DNA of 64,000 nucleotides from Fusobacterium sp. IOR10 (GTDB taxonomy: Bacteria > Fusobacteriota > Fusobacteriia > Fusobacteriales > Fusobacteriaceae), in the NCBI RefSeq assembly GCF_010367435.1, contig NZ_WJWY01000006.1, forward strand, positions 1-64,000, read 5' to 3'. The notes beneath the pieces were generated by a model. That model worked only from the letters and a program-made list of their open reading frames with translations. It was not told where the DNA came from and made no database searches. Shown here in pieces: positions 12,784-20,112 of the stretch. How positions within the stretch are numbered: the first letter of the stretch is position 1; each line of letters opens with the position of its first letter. Position numbers and translations under genes: made by a program.

Positions 12784-12927
12784 ATGCAATATATTAATCA
12801 AGCTTCAAATCGTTTAGTAAAATGGTTCACAATGATAATTCTCTTGCCATTAATTTTTGTTGGATTAATGCTAAGGTATTATGATAAATATTATAAAAAG
12901 AAAAAAGATCATCCCATTATGAGATAA
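12784..12927 (+). CDS. Tiny single-span membrane protein (47 aa)
   Basis: An ATG follows a strong AGGAGG site by six bases, 20 bases after the U32 gene, and opens a 47-codon frame. The peptide has one hydrophobic helix (about residues 15-30, MIILLPLIFVGLMLRYY) and a basic tail (YDKYYKKKKDH). No family is recognised. The last codons lie inside the operon terminator, so the stop is in the hairpin itself. The combination of ribosome site, sensible topology and operon position supports a real gene. Confidence 0.65.
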   Translation: MQYINQASNRLVKWFTMIILLPLIFVGLMLRYYDKYYKKKKDHPIMR

Positions 12928-12944
12928 TGGGATGATCTTTTTTT
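12901..12944. terminator. Bidirectional terminator between the U32 operon and ugd
   Basis: A 19-bp perfect inverted repeat (902-920 with 924-942) has a GAG loop; the outer part is A5/T5, so both strands end in a U-run. The hairpin contains the 3' ends of both convergent genes. Confidence 0.95.
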
Positions 12945-14257
12945 CCAAAGGGAAAATATTTAAATATCTTTTTTATTTCAGTATTTTTATTATGGATATT
13001 TCTTAAATCAAAATAGAAATTATCCCTCATATTTTTTTTCATTTTATTTAAATCTAAGTTTTCAAACTGAGACCATTCAGTTATTAATACAATTGAGTCT
13101 GCTTTATTTGAAACCTCATACTCATTTTCACAGTAAAGGATTTTATTATTAAAATCATGCAACCTCCATTTAGCTTCCTTCATTCCCTTAGGGCAGTATG
13201 CATTTATTTTGGCCCCATTGTTTATTAAATGTTTTATAATATCAATGCTAGGTGCATCTCTCACATCATCAGTATCAGGCTTAAAGGAAAGCCCAAGTAT
13301 TCCAATAATTTTTCCCTCTAGTCCATTCATTTCTTTTTTTATTTTTTCAACAATTTTAAATTTTTGTTTTTCATTAGCATAAATAGCAGCCTTTACAACT
13401 GACATTTCTTCCCCAACATTATCTCCAATTTTAACAAGGGCCTTGGTATCCTTGGGAAAACAAGAACCTCCATATCCAGGTCCACATTTTAAAAATTTAG
13501 GGGAAATTCTATTGTCCATTCCCATAGCAAGGGATATGTCATCTGTATTAGCTCCAACTTTTTCTGCTAAAAGTGAGATTTCATTAATAAATGATATTTT
13601 CACAGCTAGAAAAGCGTTAGATGCATATTTTATCATTTCAGAGGTTTTTATATTAGTAAAAACAAAGGGAATATTTTTTTCTATTAATTTCCCATATAGT
13701 TCTTTCATAATATTTAGAGCCTTTGTGCTGTCATAACCTATAACTATTCTATCAGGGTTAAGACAATCTTCAACTGCCTTTCCCTCTCTTAAGAATTCTG
13801 GATTGGAAACTATATCAAATTCCACAGGGGTATTTCTTTTTTTAAGCTCCTTTTCTAAAGTATCCTTTACTAGCTCACCAGTTCCTATTGGCACAGTGGA
13901 TTTATTAACAATAACCTTATAATCTTCAATATTTTCACCAATTTCCCTTGCTACATTTAAAACATATTGTAAGTCAGCAGATCCGTCCATTGCTGGAGGT
14001 GTTCCCACTGCTATAAATATAATTTCAGAATTTTTAATTGCAGATTTTATATTTGATGTAAAGGTGATTTTTTTCCTAAGAATATTCTTCTTTAAAAGCT
14101 CTTCTAATCCAGGTTCATATATTGGAACTTCCCCCCTTTGTAGTCTGTTTATTTTATCAATATCTATATCCACACAGGTTACATTATGATTGAAATCTGC
14201 CATTATAATTCCTTGAACTAGTCCCACATAACCTGTTCCAATTACTGCAATATTCAT
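12917..14257 (-). CDS. ugd: UDP-glucose 6-dehydrogenase
   Basis: This 446-residue enzyme oxidises UDP-glucose to UDP-glucuronate with two NAD+. The N-terminal Rossmann motif is IAVIGTGYVGLVQG. The catalytic cysteine C266 lies in GPGYGGSCFPKDTKAL. NPEFLREGKAVEDC and NKSTVPIGT are also family motifs, and the C-terminal UDP-binding domain begins near GILGLSFKPDTDDVRDAPS. It is the last gene of the leftward five-gene envelope locus and starts three bases after the epimerase. It would supply UDP-glucuronate to that epimerase. The final residues, KKDHPIIS, are encoded within the terminator hairpin. Confidence 0.96.
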   Translation of the reverse strand: MNIAVIGTGYVGLVQGIIMADFNHNVTCVDIDIDKINRLQRGEVPIYEPGLEELLKKNILRKKITFTSNIKSAIKNSEIIFIAVGTPPAMDGSADLQYVLNVAREIGENIEDYKVIVNKSTVPIGTGELVKDTLEKELKKRNTPVEFDIVSNPEFLREGKAVEDCLNPDRIVIGYDSTKALNIMKELYGKLIEKNIPFVFTNIKTSEMIKYASNAFLAVKISFINEISLLAEKVGANTDDISLAMGMDNRISPKFLKCGPGYGGSCFPKDTKALVKIGDNVGEEMSVVKAAIYANEKQKFKIVEKIKKEMNGLEGKIIGILGLSFKPDTDDVRDAPSIDIIKHLINNGAKINAYCPKGMKEAKWRLHDFNNKILYCENEYEVSNKADSIVLITEWSQFENLDLNKMKKNMRDNFYFDLRNIHNKNTEIKKIFKYFPFGKKDHPIIS

Positions 14258-14260
14258 ATA

Positions 14261-15274
14261 TTAATCCTCCTTATACCAATTAAAAAATTGTTCTATTCCA
14301 CTAGTAAATGATGTTTTTGGTTGGTAGGATATAAGCTTTTTAGCCTTGCTTATGTCTGCGTAAGTTTTATCAACGTCTCCAGGTTGCATAGGTAAATATT
14401 TTATTTTAGCCTTTTTATTTAAAACCTTTTCAATGGTTTTAATCATTTCCTTTAGGGAAATAGGATGAGAGCTACCTAGGTTTAATATTTCATAGACATT
14501 ATTATTTACTAATAAGTAATCCATGGATTTTAAAATACCTTGGATAATATCTTGAATATATGTGTAATCTCTGTAGGTAGATCCATCTCCAAACATTTGA
14601 ATTTCTTTATTTTCTAATATTAATTTTATAAATTTATGAATTGCAAGATCAGGTCTTTGCCTTTGTCCATAAACAGTGAAAAATCTCAATTGAAACATAT
14701 CAATATTATATAGTTTATGATAAACATGTCCTATTACCTCTGCTGATTTTTTAGTAAAAGCATAGGGAGAAATTGCAAAATCAACTATGTCAGTTTCTTT
14801 AAAGGGAACCTTAGTGTTATTTCCGTAAATAGAAGATGAAGAAGCTTGGATAAATTTAGTAACCTTATATTTTTTACAAATTTCTAGTAAATTCATAGTT
14901 CCCCGTACATTAACATCCTCATAAAGTAAAGGTTTCATTATAGATGGTCTAACCCCAGCAAGTCCAGCTAAATGTATTACCAATTGAGGTTTTTCTTTTA
15001 CAAATATATTATCTAAGTCCTCAAGATTTCTAATGTCATTAAAGTATAATTTATATGTGTCACAATTAACTATTTTAATTAAACTTTCAATGTCTTTAAC
15101 TGTGGAAATATATTTTTTGTTATTTGTACTTTCTAAAACATTTTTAATTTTTATATTTTTTCCATAGAAATCATGAAAATTATCAATATTTATAATATGA
15201 TGTCCTAAAGATAGTAGATTTTCACAAAGATTGGAACCTATAAATCCAGCTCCCCCTGTTACAAGTATTTTCAT
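14261..15274 (-). CDS. NAD-dependent UDP-sugar epimerase, probable UDP-glucuronate 4-epimerase
   Basis: This is a 337-residue extended short-chain dehydrogenase. The N-terminal VTGGAGFIGSNLCENL is the NAD site. The catalytic set is visible as ASSSSIYGNN and SPYAFTKKSAE (Tyr-x3-Lys), and QLRFFTVYGQRQRPDLAIHKF is typical of the UDP-glucuronate/galacturonate epimerase subgroup (LpsL/Cap1J-like). Next to ugd, the natural reaction is UDP-glucuronate to UDP-galacturonate. Its ATG overlaps the stop of the LAB_N gene by one base, so the two are translationally coupled. UDP-glucose 4-epimerase activity is the alternative. Confidence 0.85.
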   Translation of the reverse strand: MKILVTGGAGFIGSNLCENLLSLGHHIINIDNFHDFYGKNIKIKNVLESTNNKKYISTVKDIESLIKIVNCDTYKLYFNDIRNLEDLDNIFVKEKPQLVIHLAGLAGVRPSIMKPLLYEDVNVRGTMNLLEICKKYKVTKFIQASSSSIYGNNTKVPFKETDIVDFAISPYAFTKKSAEVIGHVYHKLYNIDMFQLRFFTVYGQRQRPDLAIHKFIKLILENKEIQMFGDGSTYRDYTYIQDIIQGILKSMDYLLVNNNVYEILNLGSSHPISLKEMIKTIEKVLNKKAKIKYLPMQPGDVDKTYADISKAKKLISYQPKTSFTSGIEQFFNWYKED

Positions 15275-15546
15275 TAATTATTACATCTCCTTTTTTTTCT
15301 TTTTATTAAATAGATATTTCTAGAATAAATAAATAAATTTGGAGTTTGCCCTAAAATAAATACAGGGTCCCTCCTATAGATAGCATAGGTTAAAAGAAAA
15401 AAACTACCCATTAAACTAAAAATCCAAAATGAAAAGGGAATAATACTTCTTCCTGCCTTTTCACTTGCTAGCCACTGAACTAAAAATCTCATTGAAAAGA
15501 AAGTTTGTCCAACAAAACCAATTATCATCCAAAAGTTAAGAGTCAT
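15274..15546 (-). CDS. LAB_N-domain membrane protein (RgtF-like)
   Basis: This is a protein of about 90 residues with three hydrophobic helices and the lipid-A-disaccharide-synthase N-terminal-like (LAB_N) motif SMRFLVQWLASEKAGRSIIP, ending in GQTPNLFIYSRNIYLI. In Rhizobium the LAB_N protein RgtF works with the glycosyltransferase RgtE to make polyprenyl-phosphate-galacturonic acid. The longer open frame reaches 15597, but AAGGAGG sits five bases before the internal ATG at 15546, and that ATG overlaps the glycosyltransferase stop (TAATG). The shorter start is therefore chosen. It should be an inner-membrane partner of its upstream neighbour. Confidence 0.85.
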   Translation of the reverse strand: MTLNFWMIIGFVGQTFFSMRFLVQWLASEKAGRSIIPFSFWIFSLMGSFFLLTYAIYRRDPVFILGQTPNLFIYSRNIYLIKRKKRRCNN

Positions 15547-16259
15547 TAGTCCTCCTTTTTCACAATTTTGTAATTTAAATGTCTTTTTTTCATCCATCTA
15601 ACTGCAAGGGCATCCTTTAAACTTTTAAATAAACGATTAAATATCCCATATTTAGATGTTCCAAATTCCCTGTCATAATGTCTAACTGGAATTTCAATTA
15701 CCTTAAAGCCATTTATTTTTGCAAGGGTAGGTAAAAATCTGTGCATTCCTTCAAATAAATAAAAACTATCTACAACTTCTTTTTTAAACAGTTTCAATGG
15801 ACATCCAGTATCTGTAATATTGTCCTTTGTGATAAAATTTCTGATTTTATTTGCAACAGCAGAAGGGATTTTTCTTTTAAGTCCATCTTCCCTTGTTTTT
15901 CTACATCCATTGACCATATCATATGTATCGATATATTTTAAAAGTAAGTAAATATCATCAGGATTAGTTTGCAAATCTGAGTCCATTGTTACAATTAAGT
16001 CCCCAGTTGCCATTTTAAATCCAGCATCAATTGCAGCTGTTTGTCCATTATTTTTTGAAAAATGATATGTTTTCACATGGGCATTTTCATGTATAGCTTG
16101 ATCAAGTATTAAATCACTTCCATCTGAACTTCCATCATCTATTAAAATTATTTCATAGGAGTTAAATTCCTTTTTTAGAGATTTTTCAACTTCATTAATA
16201 AATCTTGTAATATTTTGTTTCTCATTATAAACTGGTGCTATTACTGATATTCTTTTCAT
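15546..16259 (-). CDS. Family 2 glycosyltransferase, polyprenyl-phosphate type
   Basis: This 237-residue GT2 enzyme resembles dolichol-phosphate mannose synthase, ArnC and RgtE. It has ISVIAPVYNEKQNI at the start, IILIDDGSSDGS for nucleotide-sugar binding, MDSDLQTNPDD as the DxD metal site, and TGCPLKLFKKEVV with a late RHYDREFGTSKY. The C-terminal membrane helices of ArnC are missing, so membrane attachment may depend on the adjacent LAB_N protein. The inferred reaction is transfer of a uronic acid from UDP to undecaprenyl phosphate. It is the second gene of the leftward locus. Confidence 0.87.
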   Translation of the reverse strand: MKRISVIAPVYNEKQNITRFINEVEKSLKKEFNSYEIILIDDGSSDGSDLILDQAIHENAHVKTYHFSKNNGQTAAIDAGFKMATGDLIVTMDSDLQTNPDDIYLLLKYIDTYDMVNGCRKTREDGLKRKIPSAVANKIRNFITKDNITDTGCPLKLFKKEVVDSFYLFEGMHRFLPTLAKINGFKVIEIPVRHYDREFGTSKYGIFNRLFKSLKDALAVRWMKKRHLNYKIVKKED

Positions 16260-16276
16260 ATGTCTCCCCTTGTGTT

Positions 16277-17758
16277 TTAAATTTTATATAAATAATAATT
16301 TTTGTTTTTTAGAATTATCTTTGCATTTTTAAAGTCCTTGGAAATGTCTTCTTTTCTATTTGACTTTGTAATAATAAAGCTTTCCTTAGGTAAAATAAGG
16401 GTAGTTCCGTTGTTAATTGGAATAATATTTTTATTAATTATGTATTTAGCATTTTGGAAATCTTCAAACCTGTAGGCATATATATTTTCTTCAGGTATGT
16501 CTTCAATTTTTTTTATAATAGGTTTAAGTGTGTAGCGTTTGCTGTAAAAATTTCCATTTATAGAAACTAGAAATATTAATGACAACATTGTGGAGCTAAT
16601 TATATTTAAAGTTTTATGTACAGAATTATCTCTGTTTAACTTTTTATTTATAATAAAGGGTATTATTAAATTAAGTAGAGCTATATTTATAAGTATTTTA
16701 TTTAAATGTCTATCTTTAAACTCAATTAAATATAAAATAGTTAATCCAATGAATCCATATAAAACAGGAAGTAAATATATAAGTAACTTACCACTTGCAA
16801 GGGATAAAAGAATAAATAGAGGTAGGGACATTGAGAAAAATATTTTTTCTAGCTCCTTCCAATTTTTAAAATTTCTAATATTTTTTATATAGTGATGTAT
16901 TGAGAAAAATACTCCTATACCATAGGGAATTAAAACTAATGGTAAATGTTTTAAATAGTAAGCTATACCTCTAACATGGGCTTTTGATTTTACAATTCTA
17001 CCTAGGGTTTCTTCCCCTAGTAAAAGATTTAAATAATTTATTCCATTATGAGAAGTATAAACTTTAAAAAACCACAGGGCTATGGAGATAAAAATAAATA
17101 TAACCCCCTTTGTAAAATGAATCTTTTTTAGGAACTTTAAATCTCTATTAAGCAATAGAAAACTTAAAATAATGATAATAGGATCAATAAATCCAACAAT
17201 ACCCTTAGTAAAAAGTCCTAAAAAAATAAATGCATACATGAAAATTAAAATTTTGTAATTTATTATTTTAAATCCATAGTACATATTAAAAAATAAATAG
17301 ATACTGGAAAAAATAAATAAATACATTAACATATCCATTCTTAAAACACTGGTACCTCCTATGAATAAAGGAGAAGCAATCAATGCTAAAGTTATGGTAA
17401 AGCTTAAAGGTTCAATAAATTTATAGGTTTTTTTAAAGTTCAATATAAAATTATAGCTAAGTATTGAAATAATATAAGATGGGATGATACTCCCAATTAA
17501 GATTCCAAGCTGGAAAAAATACTTTGGAAAATACACGTCAATTGTTTTTAATATCCAGAAATAAAATGGTGGCTTATCTGGGTAAAGATTATTTAAATAA
17601 TTTAAAATAAATAAGTTGTTATTTAGGGACTCCCTTGTTATAGCTAGATATTTAATTTCATTTCTAATATCAGGAAATCTAAAAAACATTAAAGGTATAA
17701 ATATAGCTAAATATATAAAAGTAAATTTAATTATTGATTTTTTGTAGTTAAGTTTCAA
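16277..17758 (-). CDS. ArnT-like membrane glycosyltransferase
   Basis: This is a protein of about 493 residues with 10-12 hydrophobic helices and the PMT/ArnT-like N-terminal periplasmic signature (FPDIRNEIKYLAITRE and later LYPDKPPFYFWI). A Lys-rich C-terminal domain follows. Such enzymes transfer a sugar from a polyprenyl-phosphate carrier to lipid A or core on the periplasmic face. With ugd, an epimerase and an RgtE/RgtF-like pair, galacturonic acid is the expected sugar. The open frame extends to TTG 17794, but TTG at 17758 follows an AAAGGATG site and gives a normal membrane N-terminus; the choice is not certain. It is the first large gene of the locus. Confidence 0.83.
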   Translation of the reverse strand: MKLNYKKSIIKFTFIYLAIFIPLMFFRFPDIRNEIKYLAITRESLNNNLFILNYLNNLYPDKPPFYFWILKTIDVYFPKYFFQLGILIGSIIPSYIISILSYNFILNFKKTYKFIEPLSFTITLALIASPLFIGGTSVLRMDMLMYLFIFSSIYLFFNMYYGFKIINYKILIFMYAFIFLGLFTKGIVGFIDPIIIILSFLLLNRDLKFLKKIHFTKGVIFIFISIALWFFKVYTSHNGINYLNLLLGEETLGRIVKSKAHVRGIAYYLKHLPLVLIPYGIGVFFSIHHYIKNIRNFKNWKELEKIFFSMSLPLFILLSLASGKLLIYLLPVLYGFIGLTILYLIEFKDRHLNKILINIALLNLIIPFIINKKLNRDNSVHKTLNIISSTMLSLIFLVSINGNFYSKRYTLKPIIKKIEDIPEENIYAYRFEDFQNAKYIINKNIIPINNGTTLILPKESFIITKSNRKEDISKDFKNAKIILKNKNYYLYKI

Positions 17759-17783
17759 GTTTTCACATCCTTTTAGGTATCTT

Positions 17784-17825
17784 TTATTTTGCAATTGCCA
17801 TTATAATTAGAATTATTAATATCAC
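17784..17825 (-). CDS. Candidate 13-codon hydrophobic leader peptide
   Basis: On the minus strand a near-ideal GGAGGTGA site is followed, after a six-base gap from GGAGG, by GTG and 12 further codons to TAA. The peptide is MILIILIIMAIAK, almost purely aliphatic. It ends 25 bases before the preferred start of the ArnT-like gene. The ribosome site is the strongest in this intergenic region and belongs to no other frame, which argues for translation. A regulatory leader, or a tiny membrane peptide, is inferred. No known family is assigned. Confidence 0.45.
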   Translation of the reverse strand: MILIILIIMAIAK

Positions 17826-17844
17826 AGGTCACCTCCAAATTTAG

Positions 17845-17873
17845 TTTATACACAATAGTAATTCATTTTTATT
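17845..17873 (-). promoter_or_regulatory. Probable promoter of the lipid A modification locus
   Basis: On the minus strand TATAAA (845-850) is preceded by TGTG, an extended -10 character. The 17-bp-distant -35 (AATAAA) is poor. The poor -35 abuts the phased repeats, as expected for an activator-dependent promoter. This is inference from position. Confidence 0.4.
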
Positions 17874-17911
17874 AAAATTAGATTAAAATTTTATAAAATT
17901 ATTATAAAAAT
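17871..17911. promoter_or_regulatory. Four phased direct repeats, OmpR/PhoB-type operator
   Basis: Nonamers ATTAAAATT (17871), ATTAAAATT (17882), TATAAAATT (17892) and TATAAAAAT (17903) recur every 10-11 bp, the spacing used by OmpR-family dimers. They lie between the leftward envelope locus and the rightward two-component system that encodes an OmpR-type regulator, and touch the -35 regions of both promoters. Confidence 0.5.
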
Positions 17912-17913
17912 AT

Positions 17914-17942
17914 TAATGTAATTTTAATAATAGTGTTATAAT
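17914..17942 (+). promoter_or_regulatory. Promoter of the two-component system
   Basis: A perfect TATAAT at 17937-17942 lies about 31 bases before the response-regulator ATG. The hexamer 17 bp upstream (TAATGT) is a weak -35 directly beside the phased repeats, consistent with autoactivation. Confidence 0.5.
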
Positions 17943-17973
17943 ATTTATTATATTTATTTAAAGGAAGTGACAC

Positions 17974-18645
17974 ATGAAAAAAATACTTATAATTGAGGAT
18001 AATGAAAAAATAAGAAAATTATTAAAGATGGAATTAATTCATGAGGAATATTTAGTTGATTTAGCTGAAGATGGTGAGATAGGAATTAAAAAATTTAAAG
18101 AGGGTAATTTTGATTTGATTCTTTTGGATTTAATGCTTCCTAAATATTCAGGGGAAGAGATTTGTAAAATAATAAGAAAGATATCAAACATACCTATAAT
18201 AATTTTAACAGCAAAGGATCAAATATTAAATAAAATAGAACTTTTGGATATGGGAGCTGACGACTATTTAACAAAGCCCTTTAATATTCAGGAACTATTT
18301 GCAAGAATGAGGGTTATATTTAGAAATAAAAAGGATTTTTATTCAAGTAATTTTATTAAGTATAATGATCTTAAAATTCACAGTGAAAAAAAGGTTCTTT
18401 ACATTGATGAAAAGGAAATTAAACTAACAAAGACAGAATATAATCTAATGTATACGTTAATATTAAATAAAGAAATTGTTCTATCTAGAGAAAAACTAAT
18501 AGAAGATGTTTGGGGCTGGGATTTTCAAGGGGATAATAAAATTATAGATGTATATATAAATGCCCTTAGGAAAAAGATAGAAACAAAGGAAAAAAAATAC
18601 ATTAAAACTGTAAGGGGATTTGGATATATCTTAAAATGTAACTAG
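17974..18645 (+). CDS. OmpR/PhoB-family response regulator
   Basis: This 223-residue protein has a receiver domain (1-118) with the acidic pair E8/D9, phospho-acceptor D52 (LILLDLMLP), T80-region ILTAKD and K101 (LTKPF). A winged-helix DNA-binding domain follows (about 125-222) with LTKTEYNLMYTLILNKEIVLSREKLIEDVWG. All catalytic positions are intact. The partner kinase begins 15 bases downstream. The likely targets are its own promoter and the divergent lipid A locus, because phased repeats lie between them; that is inference. Confidence 0.93.
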   Translation: MKKILIIEDNEKIRKLLKMELIHEEYLVDLAEDGEIGIKKFKEGNFDLILLDLMLPKYSGEEICKIIRKISNIPIIILTAKDQILNKIELLDMGADDYLTKPFNIQELFARMRVIFRNKKDFYSSNFIKYNDLKIHSEKKVLYIDEKEIKLTKTEYNLMYTLILNKEIVLSREKLIEDVWGWDFQGDNKIIDVYINALRKKIETKEKKYIKTVRGFGYILKCN

Positions 18646-18660
18646 ATTTAAAGGAGGAGT

Positions 18661-20112
18661 ATGAAATATATTTCAAAGGAACTAAGTAAAAATTATAAAA
18701 AAATAATAGTGATATTTTGTATATCATACATAGGTATAATTTCCTTTTATAGCTCATATATGTATAAAAATACAAAGAATCAAATAAGATCAATTGAGAC
18801 CTTTGTAAACTATGAATTTTTAGATTTTCAACAGGAAATTGCTTTTTTAGGGGAAAACCCTAAAACCTTTTTCAAAGAAGCTTTAGATGAAAGTCCTAAA
18901 CCAGATAGAACCATAATTAATTTAGAATACCAAGGTAAAAATTATTTTTATGTACCAAGAAAATTAATAAAAAATAGAAAAAATTCAAAAAATCAAGATG
19001 AAGATCTTTTGAAGTCAGAATTATTAGAAGAGATATTAAGTGGCTTTGATAAAATGAATTTATCAAATGACATTAGAAATTACAGTGGATATAGATATAA
19101 AATTTTATATAAAGAAGTAAATGTAAAGGGAATGAGTCCGATAAAATTAAAGGTTATAAAGGATATGTCAAAGGAATATGAAAGGTTGGCACTTCTTAGT
19201 TTATTTTCCCTAGTTTGGATAGTTCTAACAATATTAATAGCTAGGAATATAACTAAGAAATTTTATGTGAAATTTTCAAATTCCATTGAAGATTTGGATA
19301 ATTCAACAAATAATATAAACTTAAATTCCCTAGAACTTAAGGACAAAGAACTTGATCAAAAGCTTAACTTTAAAAATGAATTTGAAGAATTTAATTTAAT
19401 AAAAAGATCCTATATTGATATGGTGAAAAGATTGAAACTACAAATGGATTCCCAAATAGACTTTGTAAATAATGCTTCCCATGAATTAAAAACACCTCTT
19501 TTTATAATCAGTGGTTATGTTGATATGATAAAAAGATGGGGTATTGATGATAAAAAGATAGTTTTAGAAGCCTTAACTTCAATTGAAGAAGAAAATAAAA
19601 ATATGATATCCCTAGTTGAAAAACTTTTATTTTTAGCAAAGGATAAGGAGCTCAATAAAAATTATTATGAAGATATTGATCTTGAAGAGGAGATGAAACA
19701 TACAGTAAACAATTTAAAAGTTTTATACCCAGACCAAGAAATAAAACTTTATTTGGATAAAAATTTACATTTAATATTTTCTGATAAGGCCCTGTTAAAT
19801 CAATTGATTTTAAATTTACTAGAAAATGCTATAAAATATGGAGAAAATAATCTGATAGAGGTTTTTCTTACTTTTGAAGATAATTATATTATAAAAATAA
19901 GAGATCATGGAATAGGAATATCTGAAGAGAATATAAGCCTTATATTTGATAAATTCTATAGGGTGGATAAGTCTAGAAGTAAAAGTATGGGAGGACATGG
20001 ATTAGGTCTAACTATAGTAAAGGATATTGTTGATTTTTTAAAGGGAGAAATAATTATTACCAGTGAAGTTGGAAAATTTACAGAGGTTAAATTAATAATT
20101 CCAAGGGGATAA
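18661..20112 (+). CDS. Membrane sensor histidine kinase
   Basis: This 483-residue partner of the preceding regulator has membrane helices at about residues 14-34 and 177-196 enclosing a periplasmic sensor region of about 140 residues. A HAMP-like linker follows. The HisKA box is NNASHELKTPLF with phospho-acceptor H274. The ATP-binding domain has the N box (LLENAIKYGEN), G1 (RDHGIGI), F box (IFDKFYRVDKS) and G2 (GGHGLGLTIV). GGAGG precedes the ATG. The ligand is unknown; envelope stress or cationic peptides would suit the neighbouring lipid A genes (inference). Confidence 0.93.
   Translation: MKYISKELSKNYKKIIVIFCISYIGIISFYSSYMYKNTKNQIRSIETFVNYEFLDFQQEIAFLGENPKTFFKEALDESPKPDRTIINLEYQGKNYFYVPRKLIKNRKNSKNQDEDLLKSELLEEILSGFDKMNLSNDIRNYSGYRYKILYKEVNVKGMSPIKLKVIKDMSKEYERLALLSLFSLVWIVLTILIARNITKKFYVKFSNSIEDLDNSTNNINLNSLELKDKELDQKLNFKNEFEEFNLIKRSYIDMVKRLKLQMDSQIDFVNNASHELKTPLFIISGYVDMIKRWGIDDKKIVLEALTSIEEENKNMISLVEKLLFLAKDKELNKNYYEDIDLEEEMKHTVNNLKVLYPDQEIKLYLDKNLHLIFSDKALLNQLILNLLENAIKYGENNLIEVFLTFEDNYIIKIRDHGIGISEENISLIFDKFYRVDKSRSKSMGGHGLGLTIVKDIVDFLKGEIIITSEVGKFTEVKLIIPRG

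What the first reader, a model, noticed from the sequence alone, without database searches (positions are those of the whole stretch)
12917..20112. Complete predicted lipid A galacturonic-acid pathway with its own two-component system
The locus encodes ugd, a UDP-glucuronate-epimerase-like enzyme, a LAB_N protein, a GT2 polyprenyl-phosphate transferase and an ArnT-like transferase. In Rhizobium, RgtE plus the LAB_N protein RgtF make polyprenyl-phosphate-GalA for Rgt transferases. The same logic here predicts a uronic acid on lipid A or core, not the aminoarabinose of enterics, because arnA/B/D homologues are absent. The GT2 lacks the usual C-terminal membrane helices, which would make the LAB_N partner essential.
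Basis: partly seen in the sequence, partly recalled or inferred. Interest (0 to 1): 0.6.

Follow-up and report, generated by a model that had tools for sequence, protein, structure and literature searches.

The report
Regulated galacturonic-acid pathway for LPS decoration
A gene cluster in a Fusobacterium-family bacterium very probably makes galacturonic acid, loads it on a membrane lipid and attaches it to the cell's lipopolysaccharide under control of its own sensor, and its least-known part (LAB_N) looks like a tiny sugar-transporter-type protein that may flip the loaded lipid across the membrane.

Summary
The genes are real and at the stated coordinates: ugd, epimerase, LAB_N, GT2, GT-C (minus strand) and a divergent response regulator/kinase. 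The genome encodes LpxC, so lipid A should exist; it belongs to Fusobacteriaceae. The epimerase carries the UDP-glucuronate-4-epimerase signature, and a true GalE lies elsewhere, so UDP-galacturonate is the likely product; ArnA and ArnB are absent. The module (two-component system, helix-free GT2, LAB_N, one or two GT-Cs, epimerase, ugd) recurs in Fusobacteriales, and GT2-LAB_N-GT-C in Halanaerobium, Bacteroidales and Acidobacteria. The regulator is tied to the operon by linkage and by a conserved direct repeat; a matching site precedes a second, distant GT-C that the finding missed. Corrections: RgtF is a galacturonic-acid transferase, not a LAB_N protein. LAB_N is a SemiSWEET-type three-helix protein, duplicated in Bacteroidales into a SWEET-like 3+1+3 form and replaced in a Vibrio by a VTT-domain (DedA-type) protein. 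I therefore favour LAB_N as flippase for the lipid-linked sugar, not only as GT2 anchor. Lipid A rather than core as acceptor is unproven; the GT-C has Asn where ArnT has its catalytic Asp. New variant of a known kind.

The parts
12917..14257 (-). ugd: UDP-glucose 6-dehydrogenase (UDP-Glc to UDP-GlcA)
   Evidence: three UDPG_MGDP_dh Pfam domains; TIGR03026 above cut-off; TuaD-like
14261..15274 (-). UDP-glucuronic acid 4-epimerase (UDP-GlcA to UDP-GalA)
   Evidence: best PDB relatives 5u4q and BcUGAE 6zl6 (E 4e-63); R109, S147, Y171, K175, T200, R207 equal BcUGAE R88, S127, Y149, K153, T178, R185; below GalE cut-off
15274..15546 (-). LAB_N protein, 90 aa, three helices, SemiSWEET/PQ-loop fold; proposed flippase (and membrane partner of the GT2) for polyprenyl-P-GalA
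   Evidence: PF07578 E 3e-32; AF2 pLDDT 82 and Foldseek top hits all SemiSWEETs, prob 1.00; profile hits SemiSWEETs; TAATG overlap with GT2
15546..16259 (-). GT2 polyprenyl-phosphate uronosyltransferase without the C-terminal membrane helices of ArnC
   Evidence: best PDB hit ArnC 9hwj E 1e-43 over residues 2-216; no hydrophobic segment
16277..17794 (-). GT-C (ArnT-like) periplasmic transferase, type B; likely true start 17758
   Evidence: AF2 pLDDT 91, best PDB fold ArnT 5f15 E 1.5e-12; profile vs 5ezm E 3e-41; NE-KY and YPDKPP motifs; start from comparison with L067
17784..17825 (-). conserved 13-codon hydrophobic mini-ORF (MILIILIIMAIAK) with Shine-Dalgarno between promoter and GT-C; possible leader or small membrane peptide
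   Evidence: near-identical in sister species L067 while flanks diverge
17871..17888 (-). direct repeat TTTTAATCTAATTTTAAT facing the GT operon: proposed regulator site, upstream of a -10-like TACTAT
   Evidence: same place as the conserved TTTTTACCAAWTTTTTACTTTT repeat of relatives; the window copy scores low (1.5) with the family matrix, the sister copy 11.4
17911..17928 (+). direct repeat TATTAATGTAATTTTAAT facing the regulator gene: proposed autoregulation site
   Evidence: 63 bp before the RR start, as the better RR-facing sites of relatives (51-68 bp)
17974..18645 (+). OmpR/PhoB-type response regulator
   Evidence: Response_reg + Trans_reg_C
18661..20112 (+). sensor histidine kinase, two TM helices around an extracytoplasmic domain
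   Evidence: HisKA + HATPase_c; hydrophobic segments 15-33 and 176-194

Best explanation
The locus is a regulated three-component system for placing galacturonic acid on LPS. Ugd oxidises UDP-glucose to UDP-GlcA; the UGAE-type epimerase makes UDP-GalA; the helix-free GT2 transfers GalA to polyprenyl phosphate at the inner face of the membrane; the LAB_N protein, a SemiSWEET-like three-helix protein that I expect to work as a dimer, carries polyprenyl-P-GalA to the periplasmic face and probably also docks the GT2; the ArnT-like GT-C transfers GalA to lipid A or inner core. A second GT-C elsewhere in the genome probably uses the same donor for a second position. The two-component system controls the operon, itself and probably the second transferase through an 11-bp-period direct repeat. 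Shown here: gene content, families, predicted folds, conservation, epimerase signature, repeat conservation. Inferred: every reaction, the flipping step, the acceptor and the regulation.
For: LpxC in the genome. UGAE signature complete and GalE separate (residue roles from PMC12338863 and PMC11519531). No ArnA and no ArnB-level DegT. GT2 nearest ArnC; GT-C nearest ArnT by sequence and fold. Module conserved in 34 Fusobacteriales LAB_N loci: GT2 34, GT-C 33, epimerase 26, ugd 21, RR+HK 28; GT2-LAB_N-GT-C, mostly with an epimerase, in Halanaerobium and Bacteroidales. LAB_N fold SemiSWEET, duplicated with a linker helix in Bacteroidales, replaced by a VTT-domain protein between GT2 and GT-C in Vibrio rumoiensis, whose genome has no LAB_N; DedA-family proteins are candidate undecaprenyl-phosphate translocases (PMC9876793). 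No GtrA in the genome and only two-domain-length EamA proteins. PQ-loop protein MPDU1 is needed for all dolichol-P-monosaccharide reactions (PMC3281891). Repeat: motif log-likelihood 181 versus 62-68 for shuffles; a site before the orphan GT-C. Some relatives encode a GT-C after the kinase on the same strand (L080, L085, L087). GalA on lipid A is known chemistry (Rhizobiales, PMC7663294; Echinicola, PMC8707317).
Against: No chemistry of this organism is known. The characterised F. nucleatum ATCC 51191 lipid A is bis-phosphorylated and its abstract reports no added sugar (PMC8048906); whether that strain has the locus was not tested. The GT-C has Asn at the ArnT D55 position, described as critical in GT-C enzymes (PMC7801869). 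A second ugd+UGAE pair in an O-antigen-type cluster could also supply UDP-GalA. Eight relatives have neither ugd nor epimerase near LAB_N, so the sugar may vary. hhalign of LAB_N with five SemiSWEETs gave only 36% probability, E 4e-4. The repeat alone is not specific genome-wide: 30 sites versus 20 in the reversed control.
Confidence: 0.62

Rival explanations
1. Same donor, but the acceptor is the LPS core (Kdo or heptose) or another surface glycan, as with RgtA/B/C in Rhizobium, not lipid A.
For: GT-C sequence does not fix the acceptor; two distinct GT-C families share the donor genes; many GT-C enzymes of this fold act on other glycans.
Against: ArnT is the only solved relative found by the profile and the best fold match; one Leptotrichiaceae locus adds a PAP2 phosphatase after the epimerase, as in the M. 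loti rgtE-rgtF-lpxE lipid A cluster (PMC5644692).
Confidence: 0.35
2. LAB_N is only a membrane anchor or allosteric partner for the helix-free GT2 (like DPM2/DPM3 for DPM1), and an unlinked transporter flips the donor.
For: The GT2s beside LAB_N have no membrane helices, and the two genes overlap translationally here.
Against: SemiSWEET transporter fold with invariant polar residues Q14, R20, Q24, E29, D60, Q67, R76, N77; SWEET-like tandem duplication; replacement by a VTT-domain protein; in some loci LAB_N is separated from GT2 by the GT-C gene.
Confidence: 0.35
3. The sugar is glucuronic acid or another UDP-GlcA-derived sugar rather than galacturonic acid.
For: GT2 sugar specificity cannot be read from sequence; some relatives lack the epimerase near LAB_N.
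Against: UGAE signature complete in this locus and in the fusobacterial epimerases beside LAB_N; no ArnA.
Confidence: 0.12
4. The genes serve O-antigen or capsule precursor supply and the neighbourhood is accidental.
For: Ugd and UGAE also occur in the genome's O-antigen-type cluster.
Against: That cluster is separate; here the pair is conserved with GT2, LAB_N, GT-C and regulator across many genera.
Confidence: 0.05

Closest known systems
Rhizobium/Mesorhizobium Rgt pathway (RgtE donor synthase; RgtA-D, RgtF transferases)
   Same: Polyprenyl-P-GalA donor logic, several transferases, GalA on lipid A/core; a PAP2 phosphatase linked in one related locus
   Different: GT2 has no membrane helices and is paired with LAB_N; the GT-C is nearest ArnT among solved proteins; dedicated two-component system; RgtF is a transferase, not LAB_N
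ArnBCADTEF-PmrAB aminoarabinose pathway
   Same: GT2 (ArnC-like) plus ArnT-like GT-C plus OmpR-type two-component system; starts from UDP-GlcA
   Different: ArnA and ArnB absent; ArnE/F slot taken by LAB_N; ArnT catalytic D55 position is Asn
Three-component periplasmic glycosylation systems (GtrA/GtrB/Gtr; Citrobacter ORF15/14/12, PMC11127046)
   Same: Donor synthase, small proposed flippase, GT-C in one operon
   Different: Flippase candidate is LAB_N instead of GtrA/SMR/MATE type; includes sugar-nucleotide genes and its own regulator
SemiSWEET/SWEET and MPDU1 (MtN3-like clan)
   Same: LAB_N has the three-helix PQ-loop fold; Bacteroidales form has 3+1+3 layout; MPDU1 acts in dolichol-P-sugar use
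   Different: No PQ motif; different invariant residues; proposed cargo is a lipid-linked sugar

Membership tests
Arn aminoarabinose pathway | ArnA formyltransferase/UDP-GlcA oxidase | tested here: not met
   No genome hit above cut-off; E. coli control above it
Arn aminoarabinose pathway | ArnB aminotransferase | tested here: not met
   Only full-length DegT scores 155 versus ArnB cut-off 631; DesI-like
Arn aminoarabinose pathway | ArnE/ArnF short EamA flippase | tested here: not met
   All EamA hits are in ORFs of 288-317 aa
Arn aminoarabinose pathway | ArnD deformylase | not tested
   No search run
UDP-GlcA 4-epimerase | Carboxylate-binding and catalytic residues of BcUGAE (R88, S127, Y149, T178, R185) | tested here: met
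   All present at aligned positions; own GalE has Asn and Ile at T178 and R185
UDP-GlcA 4-epimerase | Activity on UDP-GlcA/UDP-GalA | not testable with these tools
   Needs enzyme assay
Rgt galacturonic-acid pathway | Polyprenyl-P-GalA synthase (RgtE-type GT2) | tested here: inconclusive
   GT2 of the ArnC type present; substrate not testable; direct comparison with RgtE not made
Rgt galacturonic-acid pathway | Rgt-type transferase using polyprenyl-P-GalA | not tested
   No Rgt sequence was compared; window GT-C has no Pfam match, the distant GT-C matches PMT_2 PF13231
ArnT-type GT-C | GT-C fold with ArnT as nearest solved relative | tested here: met
   5f15 E 1.5e-12 by fold; 5ezm E 3e-41 by profile
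ArnT-type GT-C | Catalytic Asp (D55) in first periplasmic loop | tested here: not met
   Asn at that position, Glu56 kept
MtN3-like clan (SemiSWEET/PQ-loop) | Three-helix PQ-loop bundle | tested here: met
   Foldseek TM 0.71-0.82 to most SemiSWEETs, prob 1.00; sequence profile hits; clan membership also stated in PMC4499210
MtN3-like clan (SemiSWEET/PQ-loop) | Transport activity as dimer | not testable with these tools
   Needs experiment; Bacteroidales tandem form is indirect support

The most novel reading that the evidence does not exclude
LAB_N proteins are a class of polyprenyl-phosphate-monosaccharide flippase: SemiSWEET-type dimers (SWEET-like tandem proteins in Bacteroidales) that replace ArnE/F, GtrA and MATE-type exporters in LPS-decorating three-component systems across several phyla, and are bacterial counterparts of MPDU1 in dolichol-P-sugar use.
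Probability: 0.45. Interest if true: 0.75.

Novelty: new variant of a known kind. Interest (0 to 1): 0.52.

Why it matters
It predicts a regulated acidic-sugar decoration of LPS in Fusobacteriaceae, where the literature read here describes a bis-phosphorylated lipid A for F. nucleatum, and it assigns a testable job to LAB_N, a widely distributed but functionally unexplained membrane protein family. If LAB_N flips lipid-linked sugars, it gives a simple bacterial model for the unresolved role of MPDU1, whose loss causes a human glycosylation disease.

Tried and rejected
Monoderm origin (which would exclude lipid A): rejected, LpxC is present. Epimerase as plain GalE: rejected on score and residues. 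ArnB hidden elsewhere: the DegT hit is DesI-like. A first simple search for 7-mer repeats with 10-12 bp period was not significant per sequence; a shared motif search across relatives was. Genome-wide regulon listing with the 18-bp pattern was not specific, so no regulon beyond the operon, the regulator and the orphan GT-C is claimed. Literature searches for LAB_N function found only clan membership; searches for a fusobacterial lipid A modification system turned up none. A contig of a 'Rhizobium sp.' MAG with GT2-LAB_N (L119) was not used as evidence on Rhizobium, because its content looks foreign to that genus.
Full report
Observation. On the minus strand the order is GT-C, GT2, LAB_N, epimerase, ugd; the regulator and kinase run the other way. 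GT2 and LAB_N overlap in TAATG, which moves the LAB_N start to 15546. Comparison with the sister genome L067 moves the likely GT-C start to about 17758 and shows a conserved 13-codon hydrophobic mini-ORF in front of it.

Organism. The genome is 2.03 Mb and encodes LpxC, so it should make lipid A. A genome of the same family (G030) has a contig of 961,624 bases, exactly the length of chromosome II of Ilyobacter polytropus, Fusobacteriaceae (PMC3035301). The window is therefore, by inference, from Fusobacteriaceae; the genus was not identified.

Which sugar. The epimerase matches the solved Bacillus cereus UDP-glucuronic acid 4-epimerase (E 4e-63) and keeps its signature residues, including the arginine that holds the galacturonate carboxylate and the serine that positions the substrate carboxylate (residue roles: PMC12338863, PMC11519531; alignment). 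The genome's true GalE is elsewhere and lacks both the threonine and that arginine. ArnA is absent and the only full-length DegT aminotransferase is DesI-like. UDP-GalA is the best prediction. A second ugd plus UGAE-like pair sits in an O-antigen-type cluster, so UDP-GalA supply is not unique to this locus.

Donor and transferase. The GT2 is nearest ArnC over residues 2-216 but stops before ArnC's membrane helices. The GT-C is nearest ArnT by sequence profile (E 3e-41) and by predicted fold (5f15, E 1.5e-12, model pLDDT 91). At the position of the ArnT catalytic Asp55 it has Asn, as do most of its fusobacterial and Bacteroidales relatives, while Halanaerobium and Acidobacteria copies keep Asp or Glu. 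The literature treats this Asp as critical in GT-C enzymes (PMC7801869), so activity needs proof, although strong conservation of the rest argues that the enzyme works.

A conserved module. Of 100 related genomes, 39 have LAB_N above cut-off. In the 34 fusobacterial LAB_N loci fetched, GT2 is present in 34, a GT-C in 33, two different GT-Cs in 17, epimerase in 26, ugd in 21, and regulator plus kinase in 28. The window genome has the second GT-C type as an orphan on contig C11. GT2-LAB_N-GT-C, often with an epimerase, also occurs in Halanaerobium, Bacteroidales and Acidobacteria loci. One Leptotrichiaceae-type locus adds a PAP2 phosphatase, reminiscent of the rgtE-rgtF-lpxE cluster of M. loti (PMC5644692).

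LAB_N. RgtF is a 549-aa alpha-(1,1)-GalA transferase (PMC5644692, PMC7663294), so that argument falls. The AF2 model of LAB_N (pLDDT 82) matches SemiSWEET sugar transporters in its top hits (probability 1.00, TM 0.71-0.82 for most), and the LAB_N profile finds SemiSWEETs by sequence; a profile-profile test with only five SemiSWEETs was weaker (36%, E 4e-4). Pfam already places LAB_N in the MtN3-like clan (PMC4499210). Two observations bear on function. In Bacteroidales LAB_N is duplicated in one protein with a hydrophobic stretch between the copies, the 3+1+3 layout of SWEETs. In Vibrio rumoiensis, whose genome has no LAB_N, the slot between GT2 and GT-C holds a VTT-domain protein; VTT is the domain of the DedA family (own knowledge), and DedA proteins are candidate undecaprenyl-phosphate translocases (PMC9876793). 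The window genome has no GtrA and no short ArnE/F-like EamA. I therefore favour LAB_N as the flippase of polyprenyl-P-GalA, with docking of the helix-free GT2 as a second role. The eukaryotic PQ-loop protein MPDU1, needed for all dolichol-P-monosaccharide reactions (PMC3281891), is a suggestive parallel.

Regulation. Divergent intergenic regions of 20 relatives share a 22-bp direct repeat, TTTTTACCAAWTTTTTACTTTT with 11-bp period; the log-likelihood was 181 against 62-68 for shuffled sets. It faces the GT operon, in many loci also the regulator, and lies just before a -10-like box. The window carries a diverged form on each side (17871-17888 and 17911-17928), which scores poorly with the family matrix but is shared with the sister species on the operon side. 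A close match lies in front of the orphan GT-C. The pattern alone is not specific genome-wide (30 versus 20 in the reversed control); the argument rests on position and on conservation across species. In L080, L085 and L087 a GT-C follows the kinase on the same strand.

Limits. No reaction was measured. Lipid A against core as acceptor is open. The characterised F. nucleatum ATCC 51191 lipid A is bis-phosphorylated with no added sugar reported (PMC8048906), so the decoration is unlikely to be universal in the family; 25 of the 61 same-family genomes had no LAB_N hit. The signal of the kinase and any effect on polymyxin sensitivity are unknown.

Noticed in passing
17784-17825 (-): A 13-codon hydrophobic mini-ORF with a good ribosome-binding site precedes the GT-C and is almost identical in the sister species while flanking DNA diverged; possible leader or small membrane peptide.
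   Followed up: partly
L097:6319-7971 (own genome, contig C11): Orphan second ArnT-like GT-C (PMT_2) with a regulator-type direct repeat upstream; usually part of the operon in relatives.
   Followed up: partly
L112:13108-15431 (own genome, contig C8): Second ugd plus UGAE-like pair within an O-antigen-type gene cluster of the same genome.
   Followed up: partly
L004:7421-10503 (Vibrio rumoiensis): GT2, VTT-domain protein and GT-C in a row: LAB_N slot taken by an unrelated putative lipid translocase.
   Followed up: partly
L092:10318-10851: PAP2 phosphatase gene directly after the epimerase in one Leptotrichiaceae-type locus, absent at that place in the related locus L093.
   Followed up: partly
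L121, L122, L123, L124: Weak LAB_N hits in relatives are SemiSWEETs with PQ motifs (L121 confirmed by Pfam); L124 has two in tandem beside groES/groEL-like genes.
   Followed up: partly
L119 (contig of a 'Rhizobium sp.' MAG): Contig with GT2-LAB_N whose content resembles the Arenimonas locus L120 more than Rhizobium; probable mis-binned contig.
   Followed up: no
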